42,014 bases of DNA, from positions 1-42,014 of IMG/VR virus record IMGVR_UViG_3300033146_001020; one strand, 5' to 3'. Below, piece by piece: positions 3,105 through 32,866 of the stretch (positions are counted from its first letter, which is position 1; the number at the start of each line of letters is the position of its first letter). Origin of the DNA: a virus. Below the pieces are notes generated by a model, which worked only from the letters and a program-made list of their open reading frames with translations, was not told where the DNA came from and did not search any database. A program made the translations under genes and the position numbers.

Positions 3105-3157
3105 TTTAAGTCTCCTATTTGTTTTAGTATATCTTACTAGTATTTAAAGCTATGGGT

Positions 3158-8000: not shown

Positions 8001-9733
8001 CTAACTATTCCACCTAATTTTACAGTATTAGAAGCTTCGTTTAATCCATTTGTAAATGTATAAGTACTTCCTCCACCGTTATCATCTACATATTTCTTAG
8101 TAGCAGGTTCATAATCTGCATCTGGAGTGAAGATTGTAGTGTTATCAAGTTCTAAAACATTAGATTTTAAAGCTAAGCCACTTAAATCTTGGTCACCTGT
8201 ATTAATACCACTTAAGTTGCCTAAGTTAGTAATATCTGTTGAATCTATATTATGTGCTTGGCTTGCTGTGAATACTGGGTCTGATTCAGTAAAACTTTGT
8301 AAAGCAGAATCTGCTTTATCTAAACTTGTGTTTACACTCGTGTCTAATTTAGATTCATCTATTGAACCTGCTTTTAATACTGCAGTTATGTTTTGTGAAG
8401 TTAAAGTGAAATCTATTTCAGATGAATCTGTTACACTTACATCTCCAGTATTTGTACCTGACTGATTATCAAGATTAGCTTCTTGTGCATCTGTCATGTA
8501 TCTATAATTAGTATCTTCTGATATGTCCCCTGTAGTTAAAATAACTGTACCTGTTTCACCATTAACACTTAACACTGTATCAGTAGGAGTTTGTAATTCA
8601 GTCCAGTCTGACATTGAACCTGCTGAACCTGCGTTATGCATATAAGATTTGTTTTCATCTGTTCTTACACAAACATCTCCTTCTTCAGCTGTTAAAGCTA
8701 ATTGTGCTGCTTCACTAACTGCTACTTGAACAGTTGTTAAAGCAACTGGAGGTAATACTGAACTAGCAATAGTACCAGTGGTAATATTATTTGCATTAGT
8801 ACAATCTGTATTAGGTACATTACTTAATCCTATTTGAGTTTTAGTCACACTATGTGGATTATCTGTTTGTCCTCTGTGTGTATCATTTAATACAACATGA
8901 CTATGGTCTGTTCCATCACTTGTCCTGTGAGTTGTATTTGCACTTACTGCTGAAGTGAAATCTGTATTAGGAACATTTGACAAACCTACTTGGGTTTTAG
9001 TTACAGAGTGAGGATTAGCTACATCGGCTTCGTGAGTTATCAAAGCATCAGAAGTATCAACCTTTCCGTTATCATTTGTATCATATACTGCTTTAGTCAT
9101 ATCCCCAGTAGCCAAACTAGGTTTATTCTTTATATAAGAGTCATCTGCAGTATCTGATTCATTCCAATCAGATTGAACATTGACTTCTGCTCCTGTTTCT
9201 ATTCCAGATAATTTAGTTTCTTCTGCACTTGTAAAAGAAGCAGTGGTATTATCTAAGATAGTTTTATTAGAGTGAGAATGTTTTAAACTTACTGCACTTG
9301 TTAAATCAGTATTAGTTTGGTCATAAGTATCTAATAAAGCTTTATTCACATGAGTATGTTCGTTAGCAACTGCATCTGTAGTATCTAAGTTAGGCACATC
9401 TGCTAAACCAACTTGTGCCTTTGTAACACTATGTGGATTAGTGGTATCTGCTTCATGGGCTATTAAAGCGTCTGAAGTATCAACTTTACCATTATTATTA
9501 GTATCATAAACAGATTTAAGCATATCACCTACTCCTGCACTAGAGTTTTCCCAAGTGTTGGTAGCAGAAACATATTGTATGATTTGTCCATTAGTAGGAC
9601 TTGTTACACTTACATCTCCTAATTCATTTAATATAATCGTAGGATAAGATTCATTGATACTTACTGTAGTAGTATTTTCAGTAATAACTACATCATTTCC
9701 ATCTAATTCTTCTATTACAACTGTTATACCCAT
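5027..9733 (-). CDS. Giant multidomain tail fibre
   Basis: 1568 residues. The N-terminal third carries three copies of the NPHSVTK(A/T)Q(V/I)GL..VPN.D fibre repeat. Two KKYVDDNGGG linkers follow. At about 650-1000 is a right-handed beta-helix module opening with GGDYDTIQAAINA and IYPGTYTEN, as in pectin-lyase-like spikes. A LamG-like sandwich follows (about 1110-1340, FHVDFSDAS...IGEILAFSDTIT). The C-terminal part has TELNILDGA/TELNYVEGV repeats and a compact tip. It is probably the main host-recognition fibre, trimeric by analogy. The beta-helix could be a glycan-cleaving depolymerase, but I see no certain active site. Confidence 0.9.
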   Translation of the reverse strand: MGITVVIEELDGNDVVITENTTTVSINESYPTIILNELGDVSVTSPTNGQIIQYVSATNTWENSSAGVGDMLKSVYDTNNNGKVDTSDALIAHEADTTNPHSVTKAQVGLADVPNLDTTDAVANEHTHVNKALLDTYDQTNTDLTSAVSLKHSHSNKTILDNTTASFTSAEETKLSGIETGAEVNVQSDWNESDTADDSYIKNKPSLATGDMTKAVYDTNDNGKVDTSDALITHEADVANPHSVTKTQVGLSNVPNTDFTSAVSANTTHRTSDGTDHSHVVLNDTHRGQTDNPHSVTKTQIGLSNVPNTDCTNANNITTGTIASSVLPPVALTTVQVAVSEAAQLALTAEEGDVCVRTDENKSYMHNAGSAGSMSDWTELQTPTDTVLSVNGETGTVILTTGDISEDTNYRYMTDAQEANLDNQSGTNTGDVSVTDSSEIDFTLTSQNITAVLKAGSIDESKLDTSVNTSLDKADSALQSFTESDPVFTASQAHNIDSTDITNLGNLSGINTGDQDLSGLALKSNVLELDNTTIFTPDADYEPATKKYVDDNGGGSTYTFTNGLNEASNTVKLGGIVSENTDIELEEDIEFTITSYENTENIVSQLFVDNYEIKLLRTDFDDDIGLVIDEEGALFYDDVNEKGLEYASDYSTNFTDNSLVSKKYVDDNGGGTDYANTIIVAKTGGDYDTIQAAINASTSADKILIYPGTYTENVTTKAGAMTTLVGEGTMGSVVIEANTGTVLTVPSAMMSMAFIKNLKLKSTATGANASKLVYAEGTMTSFNSVSFDYNISNGYTEEIIDLEAGSFIFTGCKFDFDSTGTIGGNISFINSSGAAGYQIMQGFGTMSFASTSADHLHFFKDSSSGHIVIRDFNCDIEATSASYAGHLDFIHSTNSNNIDSINNKVSITTPSGAVGSYGQVYHLAGASGGHIHSTANKITIEGFEGNYIGNINATEQLISHFDDIVAEEGILGTGTYSYVNSPTDGDLQMSGNIIKKLINITTDYDETESWVFGILSANSSTADITATLNPTYFAGIPSGATKTFINAGSTYNLILNPNGATWGGSTQERVIYPGGYMILERVGNEGIIISSKNTSFNIDITSIDNPSFHVDFSDASSVTVDGSNHITNVVDSVNSWNGTPSSATGVEYGITTQNGLNTAKWDTNNTPLSFGNNDINDNTAGRGMTIIAVVKAKNTGDAIMSKYYDATPQREWRFYSSNITIYNNLDASGQEAVVNYSSNYGEWQVLQIEWVPGSKAKAYKNGYLLGTSSYNVTAIPSGTANLLMGASDLTGADFIGEIGEILAFSDTITDDERAAVTSKLGAKWDINVAVYSAADASPFGRNDDTNTIKPLIDNDNLDIGTGTITSGNINGIDVATDVAANTAKVSYPGSADATELNILDGATLTTTELNYVEGVTSSIQTQINAKGTGTMSNVVEDTTPQLGGNLDLNNKSITTEETAGESLVSGNLCYLKSDGKYWKADASADTTCKTELLMCIDTISADATGTFIKLGEFTTTGLTASSLYYVSETAGAITATAPTTSTSIQRIIGTALSTTVLKFNPSSTYIEV

Positions 9734-15232: not shown

Positions 15233-16555
15233 TTATTCTTCTCCTTGTTGTGAGGCTTCTACTAAATTTTGTAATTCTTCATAAGAGGGATTAGAGATAT
15301 AATTATTTACATTAGTTATCATTCCATTGTCTGGTAAATTTAATCCTTCTAAAATACTTGTTTCATCTCCTGTTGGCATAATATCTTTTAAAGTTTCTTG
15401 TAAACTTTTTGCATCATCTTTAGTACCCATTAATTTCTTTTTAATTTCATCAATCAAAGTAGGTTCATTATCCCTCATCTTTTCAAGTTCTAATGCAGTT
15501 TGTTTAATGGCATACATTTCTGCTGCAACATCTGCTACATATTGAGAACCCATTGTACTGAAATCAGCAGTGCTTTGTTCAAATCCAAACCAACTTCCCA
15601 CTTTAGATGCTGCAAATTTATTATAATAATCTACAAACTTGTTAAACATTTTACCTATTCTATTTAAAGTATTTTCTATAGATGTAGCCCAAGCATATTC
15701 TATTGATTTAATTGCATATTTAATAGAATTCCAAGTAATTGCCATATTATATCCTATCTTTTTTCTAAATATAATCACAGATGCAATCACTGCAGCAAAT
15801 GCAGCTAATGCCCATACTGGAATTAATCCTATTGCAGCACCAATCCCTATAATTGCCATCAAAGCTAAAGTTAGCCATTTTAACCAAGTGGGAATCTCAG
15901 TTTGGAATGTTGCAGTGACTAATGCAATAGAAGCGACTATTGCTAAAATTGGTGCTAACATCCCTCTAAACATTAATAAATATATAAAATTAAATATTGG
16001 TTTTAATCCCAAGAATACAATTCCAAACATAGTTAAGATTCCTCCTATTGCTCCAATTACTAATAAAGTTTTAGTTAATAATTTTTGATTATTATCTATC
16101 CAAAAAACCATAGCATCTGCAATCCCCCTTATTGTTGGAATAAAAGGCATTAATACATTATTTAATGCTTCGCCTACTGCTAACCATACTGAATCAGTTA
16201 CTCCTTTAAACATATCAAATACTGTAACTGCTCCTTCTACTGAATGTGCCACATCTTGAAATACTTTTGTAGAAGATTTCCAAATTTGGTTGAATACTCT
16301 TGAGATTGCCATTCCAAAGAACATCATAGACAAAGCCCACCCATCAAATCTATTAAAGAATTTGTTCAAAGAATTTCCTACTCTTTTAAACATCATTTTA
16401 GTTTGCATCATTTGAGGTTTCAAACTTTTAAATCCTTGTTTTAATTGATTTAACCCTTTTGTTAAAAAACCCATTTGGGATTTTATTTTCTTAAAAGTAG
16501 CAGACATCTCATCCTTTGCTTGTAATAAAACAGTTATAATTTCTTGAGTATTCAT
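15233..16555 (-). CDS. Tail tape measure protein
   Basis: 440 residues. The N-terminus (IITVLLQAKDEMSATFKKIKSQM) is the classic tape-measure start, followed by a Lys/Met-rich coiled coil to about 60, then several long hydrophobic segments at about 160-275 that may form the membrane channel at DNA entry, and an amphipathic C-terminus. At the usual 0.15 nm per residue the length implies a tail of roughly 65 nm, short for a siphovirus. Overlaps the chaperone gene by 4 nt. Confidence 0.9.
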   Translation of the reverse strand: MNTQEIITVLLQAKDEMSATFKKIKSQMGFLTKGLNQLKQGFKSLKPQMMQTKMMFKRVGNSLNKFFNRFDGWALSMMFFGMAISRVFNQIWKSSTKVFQDVAHSVEGAVTVFDMFKGVTDSVWLAVGEALNNVLMPFIPTIRGIADAMVFWIDNNQKLLTKTLLVIGAIGGILTMFGIVFLGLKPIFNFIYLLMFRGMLAPILAIVASIALVTATFQTEIPTWLKWLTLALMAIIGIGAAIGLIPVWALAAFAAVIASVIIFRKKIGYNMAITWNSIKYAIKSIEYAWATSIENTLNRIGKMFNKFVDYYNKFAASKVGSWFGFEQSTADFSTMGSQYVADVAAEMYAIKQTALELEKMRDNEPTLIDEIKKKLMGTKDDAKSLQETLKDIMPTGDETSILEGLNLPDNGMITNVNNYISNPSYEELQNLVEASQQGEE

Positions 16556-18818: not shown

Positions 18819-19196
18819 CTACGCTATTATTTTTGATAACCTTAAAGCTATCGCAACCATATTGTTCTCAACATAATAGTCTTCAAATGTTTTAACTTCA
18901 TAATCAACTGATTTAAAAGTTACTTTTTGTTTCATAAATACTGTAGTATTATAAGGAACTACTGCGTCCATGTCTCCTTCTTGTAAGTCTCCAAAAGGTA
19001 AATAATTTACCCTTCCTCCAAAAAGGTTATAAGGTACTATCCTTATAGATGTACTTGTTTCAGTAACATTTATCTCTGAACCATATTCATCATAAGAAAT
19101 ACTATCTTTAGAATAAAAAGAAGCGTCACTTGCCAACTTACCAGTTGCAAAGACTTTCTTTTCTAATTTATTCCTAAATTTAGTATCTAAACTCAT
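18819..19196 (-). CDS. Head closure protein candidate
   Basis: 125 residues, beta-rich, with KVFATGKLASDASFYS and KVTFKSVDYEVKTFEDYYVENN. Similar strand patterns occur in head-closure (gp16/gpFII-like) proteins. Starts in a 4-nt overlap with the connector gene, in the standard order. Confidence 0.65.
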   Translation of the reverse strand: MSLDTKFRNKLEKKVFATGKLASDASFYSKDSISYDEYGSEINVTETSTSIRIVPYNLFGGRVNYLPFGDLQEGDMDAVVPYNTTVFMKQKVTFKSVDYEVKTFEDYYVENNMVAIALRLSKIIA

Positions 19197-19843
19197 CTAT
19201 TATACCTGTATGTTTTAAATGAACCGAGTTTACCTATTAGTTCATTAATATCTGTTTTTAATTGTCTTACTCTATCAGCACTGAAATTAGAAGGGTCACT
19301 TATTGAAATTGCACCAACTGTTACATTTCCGCCTTCTTCTCCTGACTGACCATTTACTACAGTTTCAATAATCCTAAGAGAAACCCTCTTTGCAACTATT
19401 AATGTTACAGTAGGATTAACTGTTTCATAACCATAAGCATAACTTAATTTACAATTTTGTACACCTGTATAAGGTTGTGTACTACCATGAAAATGTAATT
19501 CTCCTTCTGTTTTATAAATAATATAATTTGCTGATGAAGTTCTTCCTTCTGTTAAAGTTATCCAATTCTCTGTTGCTGCTTCAATTCCATTTCTTTCAGT
19601 AGTAAAGCTTGTAATACTTATTAAAGGAGCATAATTAGTCCTTAGTATTCCTGACCCATCATAATCAAGATATTCATCTTCTACAACTTCATAACCCCAA
19701 GAAGTATTAGTTTCTCTTTTGAGTAAATCTGATTCTTGTTTAATCCATTCTTCTACTGTATCAGTAGATGGAGTGGTGGAACTAGTTATACTTAATCCAT
19801 TTAGTTCGTTTTTTATGTCTGTTGTATCGCAATATTTTGCCAT
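19193..19843 (-). CDS. Head-tail connector protein (gp6-like)
   Basis: 216 residues. AKYCDTTDIKNELNG at the N-terminus, a helix with VEEWIKQESDLLKRETNTSW, and APLISITSFTT and YAYGYETVNPTVTLIVAKRVSLRI later are typical of gp6/gp15 adaptor proteins that dock below the portal. First gene of the operon whose promoter lies at 19.88 kb, with AAGGAAG before the ATG. Confidence 0.75.
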   Translation of the reverse strand: MAKYCDTTDIKNELNGLSITSSTTPSTDTVEEWIKQESDLLKRETNTSWGYEVVEDEYLDYDGSGILRTNYAPLISITSFTTERNGIEAATENWITLTEGRTSSANYIIYKTEGELHFHGSTQPYTGVQNCKLSYAYGYETVNPTVTLIVAKRVSLRIIETVVNGQSGEEGGNVTVGAISISDPSNFSADRVRQLKTDINELIGKLGSFKTYRYNR

Positions 19844-19861: not shown

Positions 19862-19900
19862 TATAACTCATAAGTTATCCTTTATATACTTATCGGTTTT
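19862..19900 (-). promoter_or_regulatory. Archaeal-type promoter with operator, connector/tail operon
   Basis: Minus strand: AAAACCGATA (BRE-like), TATA box AGTATATAAA, then GATAACTTATGAGTTATA at fixed spacing. The dyad TAACT-TATG-AGTTA (19864-19877) covers the expected transcription start, about 20 nt before ATG 19843. The same arrangement is present at 24.79 and 27.77 kb. Binding over the start site would normally repress. Confidence 0.75.
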
Positions 19901-19906
19901 GCAGGT

Positions 19907-20212
19907 TTATTTCCATAAAACTGTAAGTGCAAATACTATTAAAGTGATTGCACCAGTATATCCTGCTAATTTTAGATTCACTTTATCCATCTTTTTCCAT
20001 AAAGACTCCACAGATGATTTATCTGCTTTAGCTGTTAAGGATTTATTAATAAATGTTATGTGGTCATCTAGTTTACATAATATTTTATCTTGTTGTATTT
20101 TGTTTTCATTGCTATCTTCTTTACCAGATAATATATGTTCATCTAGTTTTGTCTCTATATTTTTAATATCACTTTTCATTATAGCAATCTCCACTTCTAC
20201 TTTTTGTTTCAT
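19907..20212 (-). CDS. Coiled-coil protein with C-terminal membrane anchor (XhlA-like topology)
   Basis: 101 residues. A long charged coiled coil (about 5-75) ends in one hydrophobic helix (LAGYTGAITLIVFALTVLW) at the C-terminus. This topology matches XhlA-type lysis accessory proteins, but the position directly after the capsid terminator is unusual for lysis genes. It could instead anchor capsid assembly to the membrane. It overlaps the shared promoter region downstream. Confidence 0.55.
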   Translation of the reverse strand: MKQKVEVEIAIMKSDIKNIETKLDEHILSGKEDSNENKIQQDKILCKLDDHITFINKSLTAKADKSSVESLWKKMDKVNLKLAGYTGAITLIVFALTVLWK

Positions 20213-20220
20213 TTTAGTTA

Positions 20221-20250
20221 ATTAAATAAAAATAAGGGGAAATCCCCTTA
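20221..20250 (-). terminator. Terminator after the major capsid gene
   Basis: Minus-strand TAAGGGG / CCCCTTA form a perfect 7-bp stem with a 4-nt loop (20233-20250), followed by TTTTTATTTAAT. It sits 6 nt after the capsid stop, in the same arrangement as the hairpin after the tail tube gene. Confidence 0.7.
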
Positions 20251-20256
20251 AAAAAT

Positions 20257-21159
20257 TTAAGCAATATAAGAAGTGATGGTACAAATACCAGCCCCTCTAA
20301 GAACTTTTGCGTCGTAATCAACTACACCAACTACTTTGTGTTGTCTGTAATCAATTTCTAAATCCCTTAAGATATAAGGCATTCTTTTGTAAAGAGTTCC
20401 AAATGGTGGTACACCTTGTTGGTCTTTACCTAACATTAAAGCTTTAGCTTCATTTGAAGCAGTGGTTACTGATTCAGTAGCAAATACTTCAATACCTAAG
20501 ATAGTTCCAATTAAACCAGTTTTAGCAACTTGGTCACCGAAGTAATCAAATCTTTTAAATTGGTCTTCATCTTCTAAACTAGCTAATTGGTCATAGTTTA
20601 CAACGATTGCATAAGGATTAACTTTTGCTTTTCTTAATACTTTTTTAGCACTAACTAAAGTACTATAATCTAGAGTATCAGTAGATGCAACTGAAGTTCC
20701 ACCACCAACAAAGATATTACCTGATGCTCCTGCTACAACTGTAGAGTAAATATCAGCGTCAATCATTAATGCTAAAGCATAACCTAATTGTTCAACCATT
20801 TCATTCATAACTGGGATGAATGCTCTGTCTAATTCTTTCTGTGAAACTTGCATACCAGTTGCACCTTCACTTGGACTAAAAACTACTTGAGTTTTAGTAA
20901 AGTCTTGGTAACTTACTGCTGCTGTTTCTGCTACTGCTGAAGCTGCTACTGGTGCAACCCCTACTGTAACATTGAAAGTATCTCCTGCTACATTAGTTCT
21001 ATTATATACTTTACCTAATTTTTCAAGAATTAAGTTATCTTTTAAATATCCTAATGTTTCTTTTTCCCATAATTCTGGGTTTACATGTCCTGCACTTGTG
21101 TCTGATGTAATAAAAGCATTAGCATCAAATGCGTGGATTGCAAATTCTCTTGTATCCAT
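20257..21159 (-). CDS. Major capsid protein (HK97 fold)
   Basis: 300 residues. The N-arm (about 1-60) has NPELWEKETLGYLKDNLIL, followed by an E-loop/spine region with VSYQDFTKTQVVFSPSEGA and the long P-domain helix (about 115-145). The A-domain includes SAKKVLRKAKVNPYAIVVNY and GTILGIEVFAT, and KVVGVVDYDAKVLRGAG closes the protein. Order after scaffold and protease and before connectors supports it. It has no fused protease or scaffold domain; a separate scaffold gene lies just upstream. Confidence 0.85.
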   Translation of the reverse strand: MDTREFAIHAFDANAFITSDTSAGHVNPELWEKETLGYLKDNLILEKLGKVYNRTNVAGDTFNVTVGVAPVAASAVAETAAVSYQDFTKTQVVFSPSEGATGMQVSQKELDRAFIPVMNEMVEQLGYALALMIDADIYSTVVAGASGNIFVGGGTSVASTDTLDYSTLVSAKKVLRKAKVNPYAIVVNYDQLASLEDEDQFKRFDYFGDQVAKTGLIGTILGIEVFATESVTTASNEAKALMLGKDQQGVPPFGTLYKRMPYILRDLEIDYRQHKVVGVVDYDAKVLRGAGICTITSYIA

Positions 21160-21165
21160 TTTAAT

Positions 21166-21573
21166 TTATCCTCTATATTTATTTGTTTTGTCTAAAAACT
21201 TCTCCCATGCTTCTTGACTTCCTTTGTTAATATCTGTAAGGTCTTCTTCTGTAAAGGAAGGTGCTGAAGGTACATTTGGAGAGGGTGACTGTGATATAAT
21301 TTGTTTAGATTGTCCAATCTGAGAATTAAGAGTCTTAACTTCTTCTTCGTGTTGTTTCTTTTGTTCTAACACTAAAGATTCCATTTTCTTTTTCTCTTCT
21401 TCAATCTCTTGTAATTTCTTCTTCATATCAAGCATTTCTTGTTCTTTAGCTATTTGCTCTCTGATTTCTTTCTCTTTTGCTTCTGCATCAGATTTAGCTT
21501 TAGCTTCTTCTTTTTGCTTGATTTCTTGTTCTATCTTTTCAATATCTTCATTTTTTACTTCTTCATCTGCCAT
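21166..21573 (-). CDS. Scaffolding protein
   Basis: 135 residues, almost entirely Lys/Glu-rich coiled coil (about 1-95), then a short Pro/Ser linker (SQSPSPNVPSAPSF) and a C-terminal helix that would bind the capsid. This is the usual design of a capsid scaffold and it directly precedes the capsid gene. The leader AGGTGAAATGAAATG is shared with the next gene upstream. Confidence 0.7.
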   Translation of the reverse strand: MADEEVKNEDIEKIEQEIKQKEEAKAKSDAEAKEKEIREQIAKEQEMLDMKKKLQEIEEEKKKMESLVLEQKKQHEEEVKTLNSQIGQSKQIISQSPSPNVPSAPSFTEEDLTDINKGSQEAWEKFLDKTNKYRG

Positions 21574-21583
21574 TTCATTTCAC

Positions 21584-21997
21584 CTATTTGTATTTCAATA
21601 ATTCTTCATTATGATGTTTGATTATTGCTTGTTTCTCTTTTAATGTTTCTTCAAGATTCTTTATCATTTCTTTCTTAGCATAGATTTCCATACCATAATT
21701 ATAAATGAATCTTTCATTAACAATCTTTTGTTGTGCAATTAAATATTTTTTATATTTATCTTCTTTTTCATATTCAAAATCTGGTTTAATCTTTAAACAT
21801 TTATCAATTACTAATTGTTTAATATCTTGTTTAAGTTTGTATTCATCTTCCATGAATTGAAGAGTTTTCTTCTCAAATGGAATACTAATATTTAACTTCT
21901 CAAGATTGATTTCTTCAAGTTTAATTTTGTCTTGAATATGTTTTACTATACTTTTTTGTTCATCTGCTTTTAAAGCATTCTTTCCAATTTCTGTCAT
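21584..21997 (-). CDS. Coiled-coil head-module protein
   Basis: 137 residues, highly charged helical/coiled-coil sequence throughout (for example IKNLEE and ETLKEKQAII near the end). No membrane segment or catalytic motif. Between glycosyltransferase and scaffold, it may assist capsid assembly. AGGTGA ribosome-binding site. Confidence 0.6.
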   Translation of the reverse strand: MTEIGKNALKADEQKSIVKHIQDKIKLEEINLEKLNISIPFEKKTLQFMEDEYKLKQDIKQLVIDKCLKIKPDFEYEKEDKYKKYLIAQQKIVNERFIYNYGMEIYAKKEMIKNLEETLKEKQAIIKHHNEELLKYK

Positions 21998-22013
21998 TTC
22001 ATTTCACCTATGT

Positions 22014-22709
22014 TCAACGGTCTTTGACCCATAACCAATTCTGATTTATATGTTCTAACATTAAGTTAGTATCCACATAAACAGGTATGTCCTTTGCTTT
22101 TAAATCCAAATAAAATATTGAATCTGTATGCATTGAATATCTATCTGTATATTTAAACGGAAACTCTTTGAATATATTCTTTTTTATAAGAACACAACCA
22201 AGTCCCATTCCCCCTACTTGTTGAATCCCTTGACCCAACATTTTGTATCCTTCCTCTACCTCTACAAATTCTAATAAATTATCTTGGTAAGGTTGTTGGA
22301 TACATATTCTTCTTGGAGCGTCAGTAGAACCTTTAACACCTACTTCATATACCCCCCCTATAATATCTTTGTTTTTATTAAGTAATCTTTGTATAATATC
22401 AACTGGAACTATTATATCAGTTTCAATCATCATGATATAATCATAACCATTGTCTAATGCATATTGTCTTATGTATTCTGTTGAATGTGCTATAGACCTT
22501 CTACTTGTAGTATCTCTTGGTAGATGTATAATCTTTTTATACCCTTGTCTTCTTAGCTTGGATTGGTATGAGGTCCCTTTAGAGTTATCCACAACTAACC
22601 AATCATAGTTTTTATAACTTAAATTGGTTATAATCTTATACCATTGATGGAAGATATAATCCTTCCCACGATATGTCGGTGCTGCTACTAAAACTCTCGG
22701 TTCATCCAT
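22014..22709 (-). CDS. Glycosyltransferase family 2-like (GT-A)
   Basis: 231 residues. VLVAAPTYRG at 7-14 and WLVVDNSKG at 37-45 form the first GT-A strands, MMIETDIIVP at 93-102 supplies the metal-binding ETD in place of DxD, and GGMGLGCVLIKKNIF at about 165-180 is the acceptor-side loop. It transfers a sugar from an activated nucleotide sugar. Embedded between protease and scaffold in the head operon, it probably glycosylates a virion protein. The sugar nucleotidyltransferase at 39.9 kb could provide the donor. Both links are inference. Confidence 0.8.
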   Translation of the reverse strand: MDEPRVLVAAPTYRGKDYIFHQWYKIITNLSYKNYDWLVVDNSKGTSYQSKLRRQGYKKIIHLPRDTTSRRSIAHSTEYIRQYALDNGYDYIMMIETDIIVPVDIIQRLLNKNKDIIGGVYEVGVKGSTDAPRRICIQQPYQDNLLEFVEVEEGYKMLGQGIQQVGGMGLGCVLIKKNIFKEFPFKYTDRYSMHTDSIFYLDLKAKDIPVYVDTNLMLEHINQNWLWVKDR

Positions 22710-22728
22710 TTCAAATCATCTCAATTAA

Positions 22729-23409
22729 CTACACTATTGCTACTGTAGTTCTGGGATTGATAGGGTTATTATCTAAAGCTAAACCCAATATCTTTCCACC
22801 CATTAACTTACCTTCTGATTTCATATTAGAAGGTATGTGTGCTTCAATACTCATGCTTTTATACTTTTGTATTTGTTTAATATATCTTTTATCTATCAAT
22901 GCTTTAATCCAAAGTTTACCTTTCTCATAAATTGCTTTGATTACTCTTAATACTCCTTTTCTTTCTGTTAAAGCTTTTTTATAAAACTCTTTAGTAGGAA
23001 GGTGACTATACTTCATAATTAGTTCTTTGTATTCTGAATGAGAAATTCCACCAAAGATTCCTCCTTCATTGATTTGTTTAGCAAAATCCATTAATGCTGA
23101 TTCAGTAAATTGTGTTCCTTCTAAATTAGGTAAGGTATCAGTTAAAACTCCTTCTATATAATAATTTCCATCTTCTGCATGAGTTACAAAAGTATCTTCT
23201 TTAATATCTAAATCAAAAGTATAAAAGTTAAAATCAAAGCCATGTGCTACCCATTTACCGTCTACTTTCTTTAATTTAGATTTAGTACTTTGCCATGCAG
23301 TTTTAGCTGCAATATTAGAATCCTTTGTTCTGTTTAAAGAACCAACATAAACTTGTTTATAATAATCTTGGACAGGTTTAGGTAAACTGGAAATATGCTC
23401 TGGAATCAT
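22729..23409 (-). CDS. ChaB-domain fused to prohead protease
   Basis: 226 residues. Residues 5-53 match a ChaB-like domain (SLPKPVQDYYKQVY...AAKTAW...GKW). The rest resembles XkdF/U35-type prohead proteases: YYIEGVLTDT near 84-92, candidate catalytic His124 in GGISHSEY, and Ser187 in KSMSIEAHIP. Such proteases mature the capsid and scaffold. The ChaB fusion also occurs in other phages; its function is unknown. It overlaps the portal gene by 4 nt. Confidence 0.75.
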   Translation of the reverse strand: MIPEHISSLPKPVQDYYKQVYVGSLNRTKDSNIAAKTAWQSTKSKLKKVDGKWVAHGFDFNFYTFDLDIKEDTFVTHAEDGNYYIEGVLTDTLPNLEGTQFTESALMDFAKQINEGGIFGGISHSEYKELIMKYSHLPTKEFYKKALTERKGVLRVIKAIYEKGKLWIKALIDKRYIKQIQKYKSMSIEAHIPSNMKSEGKLMGGKILGLALDNNPINPRTTVAIV

Positions 23410-24734
23410 TCTTCATCCTCCATTACATAAGGATATTCATTGAATCCTTTTGAGTGTCCTACTAATTGTTCTTTTCTTGTAGTGGATTGTTCTCCTGTTC
23501 CTATGTTCTTAGAAGATTCATCTGAAGCTTTCCTTTGTCTTGAAGGATACATATCTTCTGATTTCTCACTAGATTGTTCCTTAACTTCTGGTTTAAATAG
23601 TTCTTCATCTATTAACTCACCTTCCACAGGGAAATTAACTGAATGTAAATATTCTTCTACTTTCTTAGCAGAGAAACCAATAGTTTTCATTCTTTCTGCA
23701 TTTTGTAAGACTGTTTCAAGATTAGTTTTAGCAGGGTTATTGAATTTAATAATTATTTTTGGGAAACCCATCTTAACAAATAAATCATTAACATAAGCTT
23801 CTTCAATTACTTGATGGACTGATTTGATTCTTGTTATTAAGAAATCTTCTTGCTTATCTCCAGAACTTCTATTTGAATTACCTGTTTCATTTGCTGCAAT
23901 ACTTGGTACTTGCATAAGTTTTAATATATTACTATCACATTTATCAATTAATGCTAATGCTTTGTCTGCATCATTTAAATCACCAAGAACTATCTTTTCA
24001 ATTTCTCCTGAGAAGGGTAAATGTTTTGTTATATCATTCTCTGTTCTTTTAATATAACTTAATAAAGTTTTAACACCATCATCATTTGATTCTTTTATAT
24101 TTAATAAGTTTCTTTTCTGGTTTGTTCCAAAGAACCAACCATAATATGCATAAATATAATTCTTTAATAAAACATATTTATGAACACTGCCTATAGCAAT
24201 ATCACTCCATATATTTTCACCTAAATCATCTATACTAATATGTGTGACTTCATCGGTAGTCCATGAAGGATAATCTCCTTCTTTATAATTTTTAATCTTT
24301 TGAATATACTCAACTATCTCTCCGTGTTCAGTTGTGATAGGTTCAGTTTGAGTTGTATCTAATATATGTAATTCTTTGATTTTAGAGTTTCCATCTTTTA
24401 CATTTTCAATGAAAACATTATTAAAACCAAAGAGGTTAGAAAAAGACTTTCTTAGAATTTTATCAAATCTTACTTTTTTCTTAACTTCCTCAAATGATTT
24501 AAGATTAGACTTGGGGTCTAATGAAGAAATAGAATAACCATATTCTAAACTTTTATCGGTTAGTGTCACTATTGCTGCTTTAACAGTTTCATCCTGTCTA
24601 ATATCTGCTAGTGCTTGCGCTCTGTCAAAATTAGGGTATATCTCATATCCTTTTTTGTCATTTGGTATTGCAAGATAATAGTCATTAATGAAACCTTTAG
24701 ACGCGTGACTTATAGTTTCTTTTGTGTTTACCAT
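23406..24734 (-). CDS. Portal protein
   Basis: 442 residues. DETVKAAIVTLTDKSLEYGYSI near 50-70, ILDTTQTEPI near 125, a DDLGENIWSDIAIGS segment around 170-185, and a helical C-terminal half are typical of HK97/SPP1-type portal proteins. It is the first gene of the head operon and follows terminase. Its 36-nt leader has GAGGAG separated from the ATG by a 6-bp hairpin (24746-24762). The C-terminal tail (about 385-442) is charged and disordered. Confidence 0.85.
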   Translation of the reverse strand: MVNTKETISHASKGFINDYYLAIPNDKKGYEIYPNFDRAQALADIRQDETVKAAIVTLTDKSLEYGYSISSLDPKSNLKSFEEVKKKVRFDKILRKSFSNLFGFNNVFIENVKDGNSKIKELHILDTTQTEPITTEHGEIVEYIQKIKNYKEGDYPSWTTDEVTHISIDDLGENIWSDIAIGSVHKYVLLKNYIYAYYGWFFGTNQKRNLLNIKESNDDGVKTLLSYIKRTENDITKHLPFSGEIEKIVLGDLNDADKALALIDKCDSNILKLMQVPSIAANETGNSNRSSGDKQEDFLITRIKSVHQVIEEAYVNDLFVKMGFPKIIIKFNNPAKTNLETVLQNAERMKTIGFSAKKVEEYLHSVNFPVEGELIDEELFKPEVKEQSSEKSEDMYPSRQRKASDESSKNIGTGEQSTTRKEQLVGHSKGFNEYPYVMEDEE

Positions 24735-24769
24735 GGTAAAATTGAAGAGTATTATCTACTCTCCTCAAT

Positions 24770-24810
24770 AGTATAACTCATAAGTTATCCTTTATAAAGG
24801 TTTCGGTTTT
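24770..24810 (-). promoter_or_regulatory. Archaeal-type promoter with operator, head operon
   Basis: Minus strand: AAAACCGAAACC (BRE-like), CTTTATAAAG (TATA), then GATAACTTATGAGTTATA with the dyad at 24774-24787. Downstream of the TATA box it matches the 19.88 kb promoter for 20 nt without a mismatch. The expected start near 24770 gives a leader of about 36 nt before the portal ATG. Confidence 0.8.
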
Positions 24811-24816
24811 AGACCC

Positions 24817-25098
24817 TTATTTGGCTTTATTTGGGAAGATTTCTTGAATATTGACATGAAAAGTAGGTATTTTGTCTAAATTATCTAAATAAAACCTAAT
24901 ATTCTTCAAAACGTTATCGCAACTCTTATTAAACATTTGTTTTGCTTCTTCTTTAGTTTCAGGTATGAGTTCAATACTTGCGTTATCTTTCTCTAATGCT
25001 TTCTCAAAACCTACTGCTGATACTAATTCTTGGAATTGTTCATCATTTAAAACGAATTTGTATTTATTACCTTTTTGATAATATCTTCTGTATTTCAT
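24817..25098 (-). CDS. Hypothetical protein at the end of the terminase operon
   Basis: 93 residues, Lys/Tyr-rich N-terminus, then ELVSAVGFEKALEKDNASIELIPETKEEAKQMF and a helical C-terminus. No family recognised. It overlaps the terminase stop by 4 nt and ends just before the head-operon promoter. Confidence 0.6.
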   Translation of the reverse strand: MKYRRYYQKGNKYKFVLNDEQFQELVSAVGFEKALEKDNASIELIPETKEEAKQMFNKSCDNVLKNIRFYLDNLDKIPTFHVNIQEIFPNKAK

Positions 25099-26600
25099 TC
25101 TTCATCCCACTCATATATTTTAAATCCTGCTTTCTCCTCTAAAAAGAAGAAACTGCTTATAACAAAACTATCTATGCTATCATCACTTCCACCTTTAGGA
25201 CAAGCTATTCTTGTACTTCTTGGAGTTTCTTCTTCTTCCATAGCTTTCATCTCAGCTGCTAATTGTTTATCATCATAAGATACAATTTTACCTTGATACA
25301 TCTTAGCTCTGAACTGAACATACTTCTTAACTTTATCTTTCTTGAAACTCATAAGTTTGACATTAACACCTGCTTTTTCTAAAGCTTGTATCAAATGTCC
25401 TGCTGCTGCGCAATCATCGACGATTACTCTTTGGATGTTATACTTAGGTATCAAAGCAATTATATCTTCTACTATTGTTAAATCTTCTTCAGCGTTATAT
25501 CTATGATTCCATATCCTTCTAATGATTTTATCATCATCTAATCGTGTAACAGTCAATACACTTCTACTTCTCTTGAATCCTATGTCTACTCCTAAATCAC
25601 AAGGTTTAGAATAACTATCCCATCTTGATTCAGTTTTATCCATCATCATATCTACTTTCTCTGCATCAAAGAAAGCTTGACCGTCTGCTGTGAAACTAGC
25701 TTCATATTCTTGTTGGAACTTCTTAGATTCTCCTGATTGTTCTAGTTTAAGTTTAGTAACTAATACTGCTTCTCTTTCTTCTTGACTTTCTATATGGTCA
25801 TAATGTAACCACATTCTGTAATATGAGTTCTCCTCATGTTCATCAAATGGGTCAAATGATTTAAAGAACCAACCTCTTTGACCGTTTGGAGTAGTCGTAA
25901 CAATGCTGTGCCCTTTTGTACTTCTCATAGTAGGTTCTGCTATAGTAGAATAAAAGTCTTCCATTTCAAAGAATGCTGCTTCATCCATAATAACTTTACT
26001 GAATGTATAACCTCTTGCACTTTCTGTTGCAGGCACACATATAATCTCACCTATCTTGTCACCTTCTGGAACATATACTTTCTTTTTGTTTTCTATCTTA
26101 CCTACCAGTTTCCTAAAAGTAATATGTAATTTGTTATTGCTATCTGTTAAACGAGATGACTTGTGAGCTGAGAACCACCCATACTTTAAACCGTACTTCC
26201 TCTTAAGATGCATATCCCCTGTGTCTATTAATGTATTAATATCGTCCATTAGTTTCTTTGCTTGTCCTTCTGATTTAGACACTATACCTATAATAGTCCT
26301 ATTACCTTTTGAACTAACAGGTAAGATGTTATATATTGAATGATGTAAAGCTATAACTGCATCTGCAAAACTCTTACCAACTTGTCTTGGTGTGCAAGCT
26401 AAGATGTCTTCGTTGTTCTTCATAACTTCTCTGAATAACACGTGTTGCCAAGTATAAGGAGTGATACCTAATTGATGATAACAGAAATAAGTTATATTGT
26501 CTCTGCATTTCTTAGGAAATACTTTCCCTCCTACTGGAAGAACTGTACATATATCATCTCTTTCTTTTATATCTTTTTTAGTTATTTTAGTATAATCCAT
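25095..26600 (-). CDS. terL: Terminase large subunit
   Basis: 501 residues. Motor domain: adenine motif TPYTWQHV at 47-54, Walker A ACTPRQVGKS at 68-77, Walker B VIMDEAAF at 203-210, coupling motif TTTPNG at 235-240. RNase H-like nuclease: DLGVDIGF with Asp339 at 335-342, VIVDDCAAA at 392-400, and the final acidic site GGSDDSIDSF at 470-479. It pumps DNA into proheads and cuts concatemers. Overlaps small genes on both sides. The arginine in the QVGKS P-loop is classical. Confidence 0.95.
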   Translation of the reverse strand: MDYTKITKKDIKERDDICTVLPVGGKVFPKKCRDNITYFCYHQLGITPYTWQHVLFREVMKNNEDILACTPRQVGKSFADAVIALHHSIYNILPVSSKGNRTIIGIVSKSEGQAKKLMDDINTLIDTGDMHLKRKYGLKYGWFSAHKSSRLTDSNNKLHITFRKLVGKIENKKKVYVPEGDKIGEIICVPATESARGYTFSKVIMDEAAFFEMEDFYSTIAEPTMRSTKGHSIVTTTPNGQRGWFFKSFDPFDEHEENSYYRMWLHYDHIESQEEREAVLVTKLKLEQSGESKKFQQEYEASFTADGQAFFDAEKVDMMMDKTESRWDSYSKPCDLGVDIGFKRSRSVLTVTRLDDDKIIRRIWNHRYNAEEDLTIVEDIIALIPKYNIQRVIVDDCAAAGHLIQALEKAGVNVKLMSFKKDKVKKYVQFRAKMYQGKIVSYDDKQLAAEMKAMEEEETPRSTRIACPKGGSDDSIDSFVISSFFFLEEKAGFKIYEWDEE

Positions 26601-26754
26601 TTTTATCCCATGTTCCTTTTAAATAATGTGTTCCTTCTTTGTCTTCTTGTTTGATAAAGAAAGAAATAATATCTTTACCAGAATAAGTGTATTCTAATAA
26701 AGGAGTCTCCCTTAACTTATTTAAATTATTTAACACATCTAATAGTTCTTTCAT
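26587..26754 (-). CDS. Small hypothetical protein between terminase genes
   Basis: 55 residues. Its ATG overlaps the small terminase stop (GAATGA) and its end overlaps the TerL start by 14 nt, so the frame is tightly fitted. N-terminal helix, then YTYSGKDIISFFIKQEDKEG. No function recognised. Conserved gene fitting supports expression. Confidence 0.6.
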   Translation of the reverse strand: MKELLDVLNNLNKLRETPLLEYTYSGKDIISFFIKQEDKEGTHYLKGTWDKNGLY

Positions 26755-27254
26755 TCTACTGCCACAAACATATCTTCTACTTCTTCTCCTTTTTGTTGTT
26801 TCTTCATTTTGTAATCCATATTGGCTTTACCTATATCAAGATTAAGCTTGTTAGCATCAAGAATCATTTGTTGTAACATCTTGAAGTTCTTTTGATAGTT
26901 CATATCTTCTAAAGGTATCTTACCTCTGTCTTCTATTGCTTTCTTGAGTTTGAGTAAATCCATCTCAAGTTCTTTAATCATAACCATATAATTAGCAGAA
27001 GTCCCACCAACACTTGCATAGATTTGTAAGAAAGCTTTAAGATGTTCTTGTTTCTGTTTTAACCATTTACCATCATTAATTAAATCAGTTACAAAGTCTC
27101 CTGTTTCTTCTGGTTTATATTGCTCTACTGCTTCTAATGCACCTGTTTTCTTTAACCAGTTATTGATATTACTACCTTTAGTGTCTCCTTTCTTTAAAGC
27201 CCTCACTGAACCTACCATTGCTTTACTAGATGCTTTTTGTTTATTGCTTACCAT
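26751..27254 (-). CDS. terS: Terminase small subunit candidate
   Basis: 167 residues, strongly helical, basic N-terminus (SNKQKASSKAMVGSVRALKKGD), a central helix pair and a coiled coil, with an acidic end (EEVEDMF). Position just upstream of terL, size and helical/oligomerising sequence fit a small terminase that recognises viral DNA. No clear helix-turn-helix can be assigned by eye. Confidence 0.6.
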   Translation of the reverse strand: MVSNKQKASSKAMVGSVRALKKGDTKGSNINNWLKKTGALEAVEQYKPEETGDFVTDLINDGKWLKQKQEHLKAFLQIYASVGGTSANYMVMIKELEMDLLKLKKAIEDRGKIPLEDMNYQKNFKMLQQMILDANKLNLDIGKANMDYKMKKQQKGEEVEDMFVAVE

Positions 27255-27426
27255 TCTTTCTCCTTATTAACGCAATCACGTTCTTTACTTCTTTACCATC
27301 TAAAAAGATTTTATACTTCTTTGCATCTGGATGAGAAGGAGTAATCAGTTCATCATTTACTGCTATTTTGTATTTAACTAAGACTGTATGTTCAATCTCA
27401 TTGTATTCTATGTTAGGAGTTTCCAT
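27241..27426 (-). CDS. Small hypothetical protein (61 aa)
   Basis: Beta-rich start (IEYNEIEHTVLVKYKIAV), then TPSHPDAKKYKIFLDGKEVKNVI and a basic end. It overlaps the terminase small-subunit gene by 14 nt. Begins MET like the gene before it. Function unknown. Confidence 0.55.
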   Translation of the reverse strand: METPNIEYNEIEHTVLVKYKIAVNDELITPSHPDAKKYKIFLDGKEVKNVIALIRRKNGKQ

Positions 27427-27593
27427 TAGTCTTCACCGTATACCCACATGCTACCCTCTGAGAAAGAGTGATACAAGTTACCTTTCTTGAAAGCTACTCC
27501 CTCACCAGTCATCTTCTTAAAGTCTTCCCAGTTGGCTAAATGAATGATTAATCCTTCTGTGAAGGAGATGTCTAATACTTCTATAGTTTCCAT
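27426..27593 (-). CDS. First gene of the terminase operon, small hypothetical protein
   Basis: 55 residues (METIEVLDISFTEGLIIHL ... GSMWVYGED). Its stop overlaps the next ATG by one base. Transcription from the TATA box at 27618-27626 would begin only a few bases before the ATG, a leaderless arrangement usual in archaea. No family recognised. Confidence 0.6.
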   Translation of the reverse strand: METIEVLDISFTEGLIIHLANWEDFKKMTGEGVAFKKGNLYHSFSEGSMWVYGED

Positions 27594-27609
27594 AAGATGT
27601 GGTAGGCAG

Positions 27610-27635
27610 TACTAGTATATAAGCTTTGTGGTTCT
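27610..27635 (-). promoter_or_regulatory. TATA promoter of the terminase operon, probably leaderless
   Basis: Minus strand: AACCACAAAG followed by CTTATATAC (27618-27626), about 29 nt from TATA centre to ATG 27593. It has no TAACTTATGAGTTA operator, unlike the head and tail promoters, suggesting separate control. Confidence 0.6.
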
Positions 27636-27757
27636 GGAAACTATATATTAAAGTATATACAATGCTTGTAATGCTTTAAACCCAAAGCTTTAAATACTAG
27701 AATTACTTTCCATATAGATATAATATAACTTAAGTGACTTAACACCGTTAATATGTA

Positions 27758-27800
27758 TCAAAATGCAAAGGTTTATAAATGATAACTTATGAGTTATATT
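27758..27800 (+). promoter_or_regulatory. Archaeal-type promoter with operator, candidate non-coding RNA
   Basis: AAAATGCAAA (27760-27769), TATA GTTTATAAAT (27771-27780), then GATAACTTATGAGTTATA with the dyad at 27783-27796, at the same spacing as the two leftward late promoters. No coding frame follows on this strand for about 900 bp, so the transcript would be the structured segment at 27.8-28.2 kb. Confidence 0.75.
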
Positions 27801-28200
27801 ATTAGAGAAGACAGAATATTGAATAACTTTTGTAACAAAAAGCTCATATTCATAGCTGAAGGAAACTAATGAAGCATCTTTTCTAACACACACATAAGTA
27901 TCCAATCGGAAGAAAGGATACTTACTCTGAGTAAAGGAGTATAGGTCGGGTGGTAATCAACCTTTTCTTGAAATAGAAATGGAATAACACCCCTTCAAAG
28001 AACCAGCCTGTGCGAGTCGGAAGGTTTCCAGTTAAACTGTTTCGGACTGACTAACTTTACAAGACAGTATATGTCAAGGATTAATAAGTAAATAACCTCT
28101 AGTAGGTTTCGTTATATAAAAATAAGACAACACAGGCGAACGATTAGTGAGCCTGTAAAATAAAAGCGTTCTTACTAAAAGCTTGTAATGCTAGTTAATA
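27800..28200 (+). ncRNA. Candidate large structured non-coding RNA
   Basis: No convincing ORF. The segment is visibly richer in G and C than its surroundings and full of local stems: 9 bp TAAGTATCC (27895-27903) with 27916-27924; AGTC-G-GAA (28015-28022) with 28041-28048 around a G.G mismatch; AACCT (28094) with AGGTT (28104); ACAGGC (28132-28137) with GCCTGT (28151-28156), whose loop GAACG can pair with CGTTC at 28167-28171 as a pseudoknot. A second GCCTGT at 28006 offers an alternative partner for ACAGGC. It has its own promoter. I recognise no known family (not tRNA; RNase P signatures not found). Confidence 0.6.
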
Positions 28201-28249
28201 CATCTCATTCTTAATAATAACAAATAATATCCCTTAATAATTCATTATA

Positions 28250-28400
28250 GTTACAAATGTTAGTAACGTATACATATTATTACATTTATTAGTCACCTAT
28301 TGTTACATTTATTAGTAACGTATACCCTTAGTACATACCCCTATATACTACCCTATACGTATTCATGAAGTAATGTTATCTTGTTACTTTTAGTTACTTA
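28250..28400. repeat. GTTAC-N8-GTAAC iterons, candidate origin/operator array
   Basis: Two 24-bp units with the form GTTAC-N8-GTAACGTATAC start at 28250 and 28302, with a degenerate third (ATTAC-N8-GTCAC) at 28279 and a looser GTTAC pair at 28383. The unit is itself palindromic. The surrounding DNA is extremely AT-rich and gene-free from 28200 to 28690. Iterons of this kind bind an initiator or repressor. Confidence 0.55.
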
Positions 28401-28597
28401 GTGAGGATAGGTAATAGTATTATTTTGGTATTGTATGAAAATGTTAATCTCTCTTTATCTCTTGTAATCAGTAACATATCTAATAATGCTTATCCCTATA
28501 TTGTTTACTTCTATTCTAAGATATTATTAATTTATTATTATATTGTGACATATTATACCATTATCCCTACTTCTATTCGGAATTATCCCTTAATATG

Positions 28598-28645
28598 ACT
28601 AGTGTCACTCAGTAGTGTTTACTATAGTTTATATACTAGTGTCAC
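28598..28645. repeat. Paired ACTAGTGTCAC sites at a candidate promoter
   Basis: ACTAGTGTCAC occurs at 28598-28608 and 28635-28645, 37 bp apart centre to centre. They flank the TATA-like GTTTATATA (28627-28635). The second copy overlaps where transcription would begin. A regulator site is plausible. Confidence 0.45.
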
Positions 28646-28690
28646 CTATATACTATTATGAAGATAAGCAAAGACTTATCTCAATAGGTG
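28625..28690 (+). promoter_or_regulatory. Promoter and leader of the first rightward genes, with hairpin
   Basis: GTTTATATA (28627-28635) is a candidate TATA box; a start near 28655-28660 would place a 7-bp hairpin AGATAAG/CTTATCT (28662-28681) at the 5' end of the mRNA, five bases before the AGGTGA ribosome-binding site at 28686-28691. Confidence 0.45.
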
Positions 28691-28696
28691 ATGATG

Positions 28697-29062: not shown

Positions 29063-29087
29063 TATACATAATAAAGAATAGTTCAAA

Positions 29088-29130
29088 ATGCAAACATTTA
29101 TATAATTTGTGATTAATACACATATTAAAG
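29088..29130 (+). promoter_or_regulatory. Early promoter of the main rightward operon
   Basis: AAAATGCAAA then CATTTATATAAT, the same BRE-like element as the 27.77 kb promoter, but followed by ATTTGTGATTAA (29105-29116) instead of the late operator. Start expected near 29127. The leader of about 100 nt contains GCGAAAGC (29158-29165) and a GTTTAAA/TTTAAAC hairpin (29174-29200) before AGGTGA and ATG 29230. Confidence 0.6.
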
Positions 29131-31485: not shown

Positions 31486-31851
31486 ATGAACACAAAGGAA
31501 CTTAACAAATATCAGTATTGGAATGGGTATAGAAATCCTATCTTAACTCAAGAAAGATTAACTAAGTTAATCAATGTTATGGGTTCAGATTGGAAGAGAA
31601 GAGTAGATTTAACAAAGCTTACTAAATTAGACCATAAAGTAACTGGTACAGTTATTAACTTAGGATTAAAGTATGAATTAATCCAAGCAAGAATCATCCC
31701 TAACTGGTTCTTTAAACAAAGATGCACAAGAAAAAGTAGAAAAGGTAAGATAAAACACACATATTACAAACTAACACGATATGGTAAACAAGAAACTAAT
31801 ATACTAAAGAATATATTAAGAGACCAAAAGCACAAGAACTTAGAACCTTAA
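31486..31851 (+). CDS. Winged-helix-like DNA-binding protein candidate
   Basis: 121 residues, basic. RRVDLTKLTKLDHKVTGTVI and LGLKYELIQARIIP fit a helix-turn-helix followed by a wing, and HTYYKLTRYGKQE is a typical ending of small winged-helix regulators. It is flanked on both sides by strongly structured gene-free segments. It is a candidate regulator for the TAACTTATGAGTTA or GTTAC sites, without direct evidence. Confidence 0.6.
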   Translation: MNTKELNKYQYWNGYRNPILTQERLTKLINVMGSDWKRRVDLTKLTKLDHKVTGTVINLGLKYELIQARIIPNWFFKQRCTRKSRKGKIKHTYYKLTRYGKQETNILKNILRDQKHKNLEP

Positions 31852-32276: not shown

Positions 32277-32372
32277 ATGAAAACTAACAAAGAATCATGG
32301 GAAGATGAAGGTGATATATTTATTACACCAGAAAGACATTTATTGTTAAGATTAAACGAGGTAAGAAAATGA
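32277..32372 (+). CDS. Micropeptide (31 aa)
   Basis: KTNKESWEDEGDIFITPER then a basic end; its last bases contain GAGGTAAG for the next gene and its stop overlaps the next ATG. Too short to assign. Confidence 0.45.
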   Translation: MKTNKESWEDEGDIFITPERHLLLRLNEVRK

Positions 32373-32866
32373 AAACAATTAAATTAGAAAATGGTAAAAC
32401 AGTAGAAATTAGTGAAGAAAGTTATAAAGCCTTACAAGATAGTATTAAAGAAAATTATGTTATTAATAATAATTCTGCTGTTGTTGATAAATATAAGTAT
32501 GTTTCTGAATTAAGTAATGATAATAAAATAAAAACCACGATTAAAAAAGATAAACAAATTTATGTTAATATGGTTTTTGCAAGGGATAGTGTATTTGGAA
32601 AGAATTGTGTTTTTATAAAATGTGAGTTTGGTTCAAGTTGTAAATTTGGTTCAGGTTGTGAGTTTAATACAAGTTGTGAGTTTGGTTCAGGTTGTGAGTT
32701 TAATACAATTTGTGAGTTTAATACAAGTTGTGGATTTGGTTCATATTGTGAGTTTGGTTCATATTGTGAGTTTGGTTCAGGTTGTGAGTTTGGTTCATAT
32801 TGTAAGTGGGGTTCAAATTGTAAAAAACAACTTCCTTATTGGGATAAAAACGGAAAACATGAATGA
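32369..32866 (+). CDS. Cysteine-stacked hexapeptide-repeat protein
   Basis: 165 residues. The N-terminus (1-65) is an unremarkable helix/strand segment with an ISEESYKALQ motif. From residue 85 to 151 twelve cysteines occur exactly every six residues (85, 91, 97 ... 151) in units of the form C-E-F-(G/N)-(S/T)-x. Period six with an aromatic at a fixed position is the signature of a left-handed beta-helix; three units per turn would give four turns, with the cysteines in lines on the faces. A one-residue slip at 80-85 marks the entry. Stacked cysteines could bind metal, form disulfides or stabilise the coil. Function unknown. Confidence 0.75.
   Translation: MKTIKLENGKTVEISEESYKALQDSIKENYVINNNSAVVDKYKYVSELSNDNKIKTTIKKDKQIYVNMVFARDSVFGKNCVFIKCEFGSSCKFGSGCEFNTSCEFGSGCEFNTICEFNTSCGFGSYCEFGSYCEFGSGCEFGSYCKWGSNCKKQLPYWDKNGKHE
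32621..32821 (+). repeat. 18-bp coding tandem repeat
   Basis: DNA of the hexapeptide region: units such as GAGTTTGGTTCAGGTTGT repeat with few changes, about 11-12 copies. Two unit types (FGS and FNT) alternate in part, suggesting expansion by slippage or unequal crossing-over. The repeat also opens an alternate frame that is not a gene. Confidence 0.8.

What the first reader, a model, noticed from the sequence alone, without database searches (positions are those of the whole stretch)
19862..27800. Three late/ncRNA promoters share a module of nearly 50 bp with an operator dyad
At 19862-19900 (minus), 24770-24810 (minus) and 27758-27800 (plus) a BRE/TATA core is followed at identical spacing by GATAACTTATGAGTTATA. 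The dyad TAACT-TATG-AGTTA covers the expected start. Two drive head and connector/tail operons and the third drives a non-coding segment. It is absent from the terminase and early promoters. This suggests one viral repressor or activator coordinating late transcription with a large RNA; the candidate winged-helix protein at 31.49 kb is the nearest regulator. Sequence identity was read directly; the regulatory role is inference.
Basis: partly seen in the sequence, partly recalled or inferred. Interest (0 to 1): 0.85.

Follow-up and report, generated by a model that had tools for sequence, protein, structure and literature searches.

The report
Shared operator-like promoter in archaeal virus
A tailed virus, most likely of an archaeon, starts its capsid genes, its tail genes and one untranslated RNA from three promoters that carry the same 18-base symmetrical sequence, most likely a switch site for one regulator; shared promoter repeats of this type are already known from other archaeal viruses, but this lineage keeps changing the sequence in that one position.

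Summary
GATAACTTATGAGTTATA occurs exactly three times, at 19862-19879 (-), 24772-24789 (-) and 27781-27798 (+), each one base after a TATA box with a BRE-like stretch before it. Full-module scores are 71-75; the next site scores 5.7. Two copies start the portal-to-capsid and connector-to-tail operons. The third starts a stretch without credible genes that runs into an origin-like repeat region. The dyad abuts the expected start from upstream rather than covering it.

The terminase operon uses a second class, TTWWATACTAG (four intergenic copies).

The nearest visible relative, L224 (syntenic, 31-38% identical), keeps the class II box before its terminase operon and a TATA box before portal, but not the 18-mer. 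Eleven more distant contigs carry another palindrome, GAGTATATACTC, in the same slot (18 copies, 0.0 expected). All eleven encode a small C68/AbrB-like protein that the window lacks.

Best reading: a virus-specific operator just downstream of a strong TATA box, probably for a repressor that times late transcription. The proposed regulator at 31486-31851 is unsupported. Closest precedents are the halovirus HF2 intergenic repeats and shared promoter sequences of other archaeal viruses: a new member of a known kind.

The parts
24772..24810 (-). Class I module B: BRE-like AAAACCGAAACC 24799-24810, TATA box TTTATAAA 24791-24798, 18-mer operator candidate 24772-24789; 37 bp before the portal gene
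   Evidence: Exact 18-mer, alignment, PWM 74.1
19862..19901 (-). Class I module A: BRE-like CAAAACCGATAAG 19889-19901, TATA box TATATAAA 19881-19888, 18-mer 19862-19879; 18 bp before the connector gene
   Evidence: Exact 18-mer, alignment, PWM 74.9
27758..27798 (+). Class I module C: BRE-like TCAAAATGCAAAGG 27758-27771, TATA box TTTATAAA 27772-27779, 18-mer 27781-27798; reads into the non-coding segment
   Evidence: Exact 18-mer, alignment, PWM 70.9
19907..24734 (-). Operon behind module B: portal 23406-24734, 22729-23409, glycosyltransferase-like 22014-22709, 21584-21997, 21166-21573, major capsid 20257-21159, 19907-20212
   Evidence: Portal and capsid families; synteny with L224
2176..19843 (-). 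Genes behind module A: 19193-19843 (connector by position), tail genes, tape measure 15233-16555, fibre 5027-9733; later internal promoters such as 3147 also act here
   Evidence: PHROGs hits for tape measure and tail proteins; the connector role is by position only
27801..28690 (+). Segment read from module C without a credible gene; G+C island at 27.9-28.1 kb
   Evidence: ORF lists, G+C, fold z -1.9, no Rfam family
28220..28660 (.). A+T-rich direct-repeat region at the divergence of the two gene arms, likely replication origin (inference)
   Evidence: Repeats; strand skew changes sign at 28-29 kb
27612..27622 (-). Class II box TTATATACTAG of the terminase operon
   Evidence: Four copies, 0.52 expected; conserved before the terminase operon of L224
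27690..27700 (+). Class II box TTAAATACTAG, about 80 bp upstream of module C on the same strand
28629..28639 (+). Class II box TTATATACTAG before the small gene at 28694
3137..3147 (-). Class II box TTAAATACTAG before gene 2886-3104
   Evidence: 24-nt inverted repeat with 27677-27700, 96%
29083..29102 (+). Early promoter; shares the BRE stretch TCAAAATGCAAA with module C but has neither the 18-mer nor the class II element
31486..31851 (+).
   Evidence: No family, pLDDT 44, no relatives

Best explanation
The three sites are promoters read by a TBP/TFB-type (archaeal) transcription machinery. The identical 18-mer between the TATA box and the expected start is the operator of one sequence-specific dimeric regulator, most likely virus-encoded and most likely a repressor. 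Bound there, it would block RNA polymerase loading at the portal-capsid operon, the connector-tail operon and the untranslated RNA; its release would switch all three on together as the late class. Shown: the repeat, its fixed place, its dyad, the operons behind it, and a separate class II at the terminase operon. Inferred: transcription starts, the regulator, the sign of regulation and the timing.
For: Exact triple repeat at fixed spacing to a TATA box while outer flanks have diverged. Conserved block is a 6+6 dyad (chance 0.013). Structural operons behind two copies. A distinct class II serves the terminase operon, and its box is conserved in L224. Related contigs carry another palindrome in the same slot, 18 copies against 0.0 expected, and encode a small C68/AbrB-fold protein near the terminase genes. 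BRE and TATA sequences look strong, so silence early in infection would need a repressor. Most characterised archaeal regulators are repressors that act by promoter occlusion (PMC5569661).
Against: The nearest visible relative lacks the 18-mer at its portal promoter. No regulator is identified in the window. No transcript data. Dyads are frequent in such A+T-rich DNA. An activator or an extended core promoter element would leave the same sequence pattern.
Confidence: 0.55

Rival explanations
1. The 18-mer is the binding site of a late activator, or of a viral factor that helps TBP/TFB or RNA polymerase, and not of a repressor.
For: It marks late-type structural operons and is absent from early promoters. 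The asymmetric spacer TATG and bases just outside the arms are also identical in all three. AvtR can activate as well as repress (PMC5569661).
Against: BRE and TATA boxes look strong without help. From general knowledge, archaeal activators usually bind upstream of the BRE, and a protein at -21 to -1 would be in the path of RNA polymerase.
Confidence: 0.22
2. The module is an extended core promoter or initiator spread by duplication inside the genome; no regulator binds it, and the dyad is incidental.
For: Similarity of 44-61 bp between copies fits duplicated promoters. Dyads are frequent in this DNA. In HF2, mutation around the start abolished activity (PMC8707807).
Against: 18/18 identity in all three against low identity in the outer flanks needs a constraint that other promoters of the same virus do not share.
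Confidence: 0.15
3. The virus infects a bacterium and these are sigma-70-type promoters with the dyad as an operator between -35 and -10 (TTTATA, 17 bp, TATAAT/TATACT/TATATT).
For: All three copies end in a good -10 hexamer at 17-bp spacing (sequence). No host is named. The best capsid matches among isolates are bacteriophages.
Against: The conserved upstream part is BRE plus TATA, not TTGACA. The 29083 promoter has the same BRE/TATA form. The best-scoring TerL relatives include contigs in archaeal genomes (L163 and L164 in the Woesearchaeota phylum, L166 in Thermoproteota), and related contigs have the same TATA layout.
Confidence: 0.08

Closest known systems
Halovirus HF2 intergenic repeats, classes I and II (PMC8707807)
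   Same: Archaeal tailed virus with two classes of repeated intergenic sequence, each holding a TATA box with conserved sequence on towards the start; one class belongs to the late morphogenesis genes. The authors propose virus-encoded factors that read them.
   Different: Different sequences; seven plus two copies; promoter activity and starts were measured there. Here a dyad sits between TATA box and start, and one copy drives a non-coding segment. No sequence kinship was tested beyond a weak TerL match to a virus of the same genus (HJTV-3).
Shared regulatory sequences around BRE/TATA in SIRV2 and other archaeal viruses (PMC11065993)
   Same: Virus-specific conserved sequence around a common BRE/TATA core; inverted repeats in some viruses read as repressor sites.
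   Different: Those mark early anti-defence genes and the inverted repeats overlap the BRE; here they mark structural genes and lie downstream of the TATA box.
Archaeal viral regulators SvtR, AvtR, F55 and C68 (PMC5569661)
   Same: Small viral DNA-binding proteins acting at inverted or tandem repeats in viral promoters. Relatives of the window encode proteins with the C68 fold.
   Different: No such protein is identified in the window, and the AbrB-like gene of its relatives is missing.

Membership tests
Archaeal BRE/TATA promoter | TATA box with purine-rich BRE directly upstream | tested here: met
   All three copies; B reads CGAAACCTTTATAAA
Archaeal BRE/TATA promoter | Transcription start 26-31 bp downstream of the first TATA base | not testable with these tools
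   No transcript data
Repeated viral promoter module (HF2 type) | Several near-identical intergenic copies that include the TATA box, before operons of one temporal class | tested here: met
   Three copies; two before structural operons. The temporal class itself is inferred
Repeated viral promoter module (HF2 type) | Sequence and position conserved in related viruses | tested here: not met
   L224 keeps the class II box and the portal TATA box but not the 18-mer; only one syntenic relative was visible
Repeated viral promoter module (HF2 type) | Measured promoter activity | not testable with these tools
   Experiment needed
Repressor operator | Dyad at a fixed place that overlaps promoter elements | tested here: met
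   6+6 arms, centred 17.5 bp from the first TATA base; chance 0.013 for the dyad
Repressor operator | A cognate DNA-binding protein | tested here: inconclusive
   Candidates only: 31486-31851 (pLDDT 44) and two Cys-rich small proteins
C68/AbrB-like regulators (seen in relatives) | Swapped-hairpin fold | tested here: inconclusive
   Model pLDDT 91; top folds C56, C68, MazE and SpoVT with Foldseek probability 0.80-0.97 but weak E-values of 0.26-1.1; PF04014 in 5 of 12 members, best E 0.0005
C68/AbrB-like regulators (seen in relatives) | Presence in the window | tested here: not met
   No hit, also in stop-to-stop frames

The most novel reading that the evidence does not exclude
In this lineage of archaeal tailed viruses, one promoter slot between the TATA box and the start holds a palindromic operator that is swapped together with its small viral regulator. 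In the window lineage the swapped switch also drives an untranslated RNA that runs into the replication origin, coupling structural-gene expression to replication or packaging.
Probability: 0.2. Interest if true: 0.6.

Novelty: new member of a known kind. Interest (0 to 1): 0.45.

Why it matters
How archaeal tailed viruses time late transcription with only the host polymerase is largely unknown. Here a complete-looking genome shows two promoter classes, each with a defined sequence that can be placed on a reporter. Its distant relatives show a second operator type that occurs with a small C68-like gene, a concrete regulator-operator pair to test. The untranslated RNA in the late class, pointed at the likely origin, is the least expected part.

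Tried and rejected
Exact 18-mer in IMG/VR: five hits, all inside one gene of unrelated, cyanophage-like viruses without a TATA box; chance. Degenerate TATA plus dyad in IMG/VR: 12 contigs; 10 hits lie inside open reading frames and the other two are one sequence seen twice with another spacer, so none matches the module. TerL and MCP single-protein scans of the viral collection, and TerL in the genome collection: no relatives. An alignment of TerL with bacterial phages was too divergent to search with. A degenerate TerL motif gave one unrelated contig. Viral TFIIB: none. Rfam and tRNA scans of the non-coding segment: nothing credible. Structure of the 31486 product: pLDDT 44, so no fold search was made. 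AbrB-like protein in the window: none. GAGTATATACTC modules were absent from 645 kb of archaeal and provirus-like loci, so they do not look like a general host element. MCP search in 14 related contigs: none.

Full report
What is there. The window is a 42,014-base virus record with a 114-base direct repeat at its two ends, so it is probably complete. Structural genes are on the minus strand: TerL 25095-26600, portal 23406-24734, major capsid 20257-21159, tape measure 15233-16555 and a long fibre 5027-9733. Many small genes, a primase-like protein, an RNA ligase and others are on the plus strand. No TFIIB homologue is encoded.

The observation. The 18-mer occurs exactly three times and nowhere else in the window, one base behind a TATA box, with BRE-like sequence before it. 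Identity among the three is 18/18 in the core, 8/10 over the TATA box, 7-10/15 over the BRE stretch and low in the outer flanks. Gap-free similarity reaches 44-61 bases at 80-84%, so 'nearly 50 bp' is fair. The dyad is ATAACT-TATG-AGTTAT. Dyads of this size are common in A+T-rich DNA, and a random 18-mer shows one with probability 0.013. The strength of the case is therefore the triple exact repeat at one spacing, supported by the symmetry. The expected start (26-31 bp from the first TATA base; HF2 data in PMC8707807 give 26) falls at or just after the end of the 18-mer. The dyad thus lies just upstream of the start.

What the copies drive. B (24772-24810) is 37 bp before the portal gene and A (19862-19901) is 18 bp before the connector gene. 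C (27758-27798) faces about 890 bases without a credible gene. The first likely gene, at 28694, has its own class II box at 28629. The C segment has a local G+C island at 27.9-28.1 kb, a modest folding z-score of -1.9 and no Rfam family. It then enters an A+T-rich region of direct repeats (28.22-28.66 kb), placed where the gene arms diverge and the strand skew changes. I read that region as the likely replication origin; this is inference.

A second class. TTWWATACTAG occurs four times, all intergenic (0.52 expected): 27622 (-) before the terminase operon, 3147 (-), 27690 (+) and 28629 (+). The untranslated RNA thus has a class II and a class I promoter in tandem. The early promoter at 29083 shares the 12-base BRE stretch with C but has neither element. 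Two promoter classes in one archaeal tailed virus is the HF2 pattern.

Archaeal or bacterial. Each copy also ends in a passable -10 hexamer at 17-bp spacing from the TTTATA position, so a bacterial reading had to be weighed. The conserved upstream sequence is BRE plus TATA and not TTGACA. TerL relatives found in archaeal genomes score up to 84-85 bits (L163, in the phylum of Woesearchaeota, and L166, in Thermoproteota), above the best bacteriophage hit listed (67 bits); the searches differ in size, so this is support and not proof. Related viral contigs show the same TATA layout. I take an archaeal host as likely and leave its phylum open; the genome contigs could be misbinned.

Relatives. A portal search found L224, a 7.4-kb syntenic contig with TerL 34%, portal 31%, gene 22729 35%, glycosyltransferase-like 33% and capsid 38% identical. 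It keeps TTTATATACTAG before its terminase operon and a TATA box 76 bp before portal, but the 18-mer is absent; the best match is 13/18, elsewhere. The contig ends before the connector gene, so site A could not be compared. More distant TerL relatives (most read in full) lack the 18-mer module, but 11 contigs carry TATA plus GAGTATATACTC 18 times (0.0 expected) in the same slot. This was not seen in 645 kb of archaeal loci. Very near records may be hidden by the tools, so absence of close relatives is not shown.

The regulator of the relatives. All 11 contigs with that module encode a small protein (about 50-70 aa) near the terminase genes. Among near-complete contigs, 8 have both, 1 has the protein only and 3 have neither (Fisher p = 0.018, not corrected for relatedness). 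The protein models well (pLDDT 91) and its best folds are C56 and C68 of archaeal virus-plasmids, MazE and SpoVT, with high probability but weak E-values for so short a chain. In several contigs (G1651, G1642, G1641) the operator lies directly before this gene, as expected for autoregulation. The contig G1645 has the protein but no GAGTATATACTC; it has four other palindromes behind TATA boxes, one before the orthologue of a gene that the module precedes in other contigs. So the slot is shared and its palindromes vary. The window lacks the protein.

Mechanism. The best-supported model is a repressor operator between the TATA box and the start of near-consensus promoters. The regulator would be viral and expressed early, and its loss or dilution during replication would open capsid, tail and the untranslated RNA together. 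The repeat, spacing, dyad, genes and second class are shown. The regulator, its sign and the timing are inferred. The 31486 product remains only one candidate among small early proteins.

Assessment. Shared virus-specific sequences around a BRE/TATA core are known from HF2 and from several other archaeal viruses (PMC8707807, PMC11065993), so this is a new member of a known kind. The untranslated RNA in the late class and the changing palindromes in one slot raise its interest above routine.

Noticed in passing
L191-L220 (contigs G1638, G1640-G1644, G1646, G1648, G1651), L164, L178: A repeated promoter module, TATA box plus GAGTATATACTC, 18 copies in 11 distant relatives with 0.0 expected; often before a conserved gene of about 250 aa (MKLPTSDKTSSFGNKPHIKKGYY...) of unknown function.
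   Followed up: partly
L206:5226-5399, L164:6081-6266, L210:1500-1655 and nine others (alignment A5): A 50-70 aa protein near the terminase genes with a predicted C68/AbrB/MazE fold; probable regulator of the module above.
   Followed up: partly
window 3137-3147, 27612-27622, 27690-27700, 28629-28639: Second promoter class TTWWATACTAG, four intergenic copies; kept before the terminase operon of L224.
   Followed up: yes
window 28220-28660: Direct-repeat, A+T-rich region where the gene arms diverge; likely replication origin.
   Followed up: partly
window 1-114 and 41901-42014: Identical 114-base direct repeat at the two ends, so the record is probably a complete genome.
   Followed up: no
window 32578-32839: About eleven 18-base tandem repeats inside gene 32369-32866, giving a CEFGSG/CEFNTS repeat protein.
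   Followed up: no
L224:1-100: Nine-base tandem repeat (TACTATTAC) at the contig end upstream of the terminase operon of the nearest relative.
   Followed up: no
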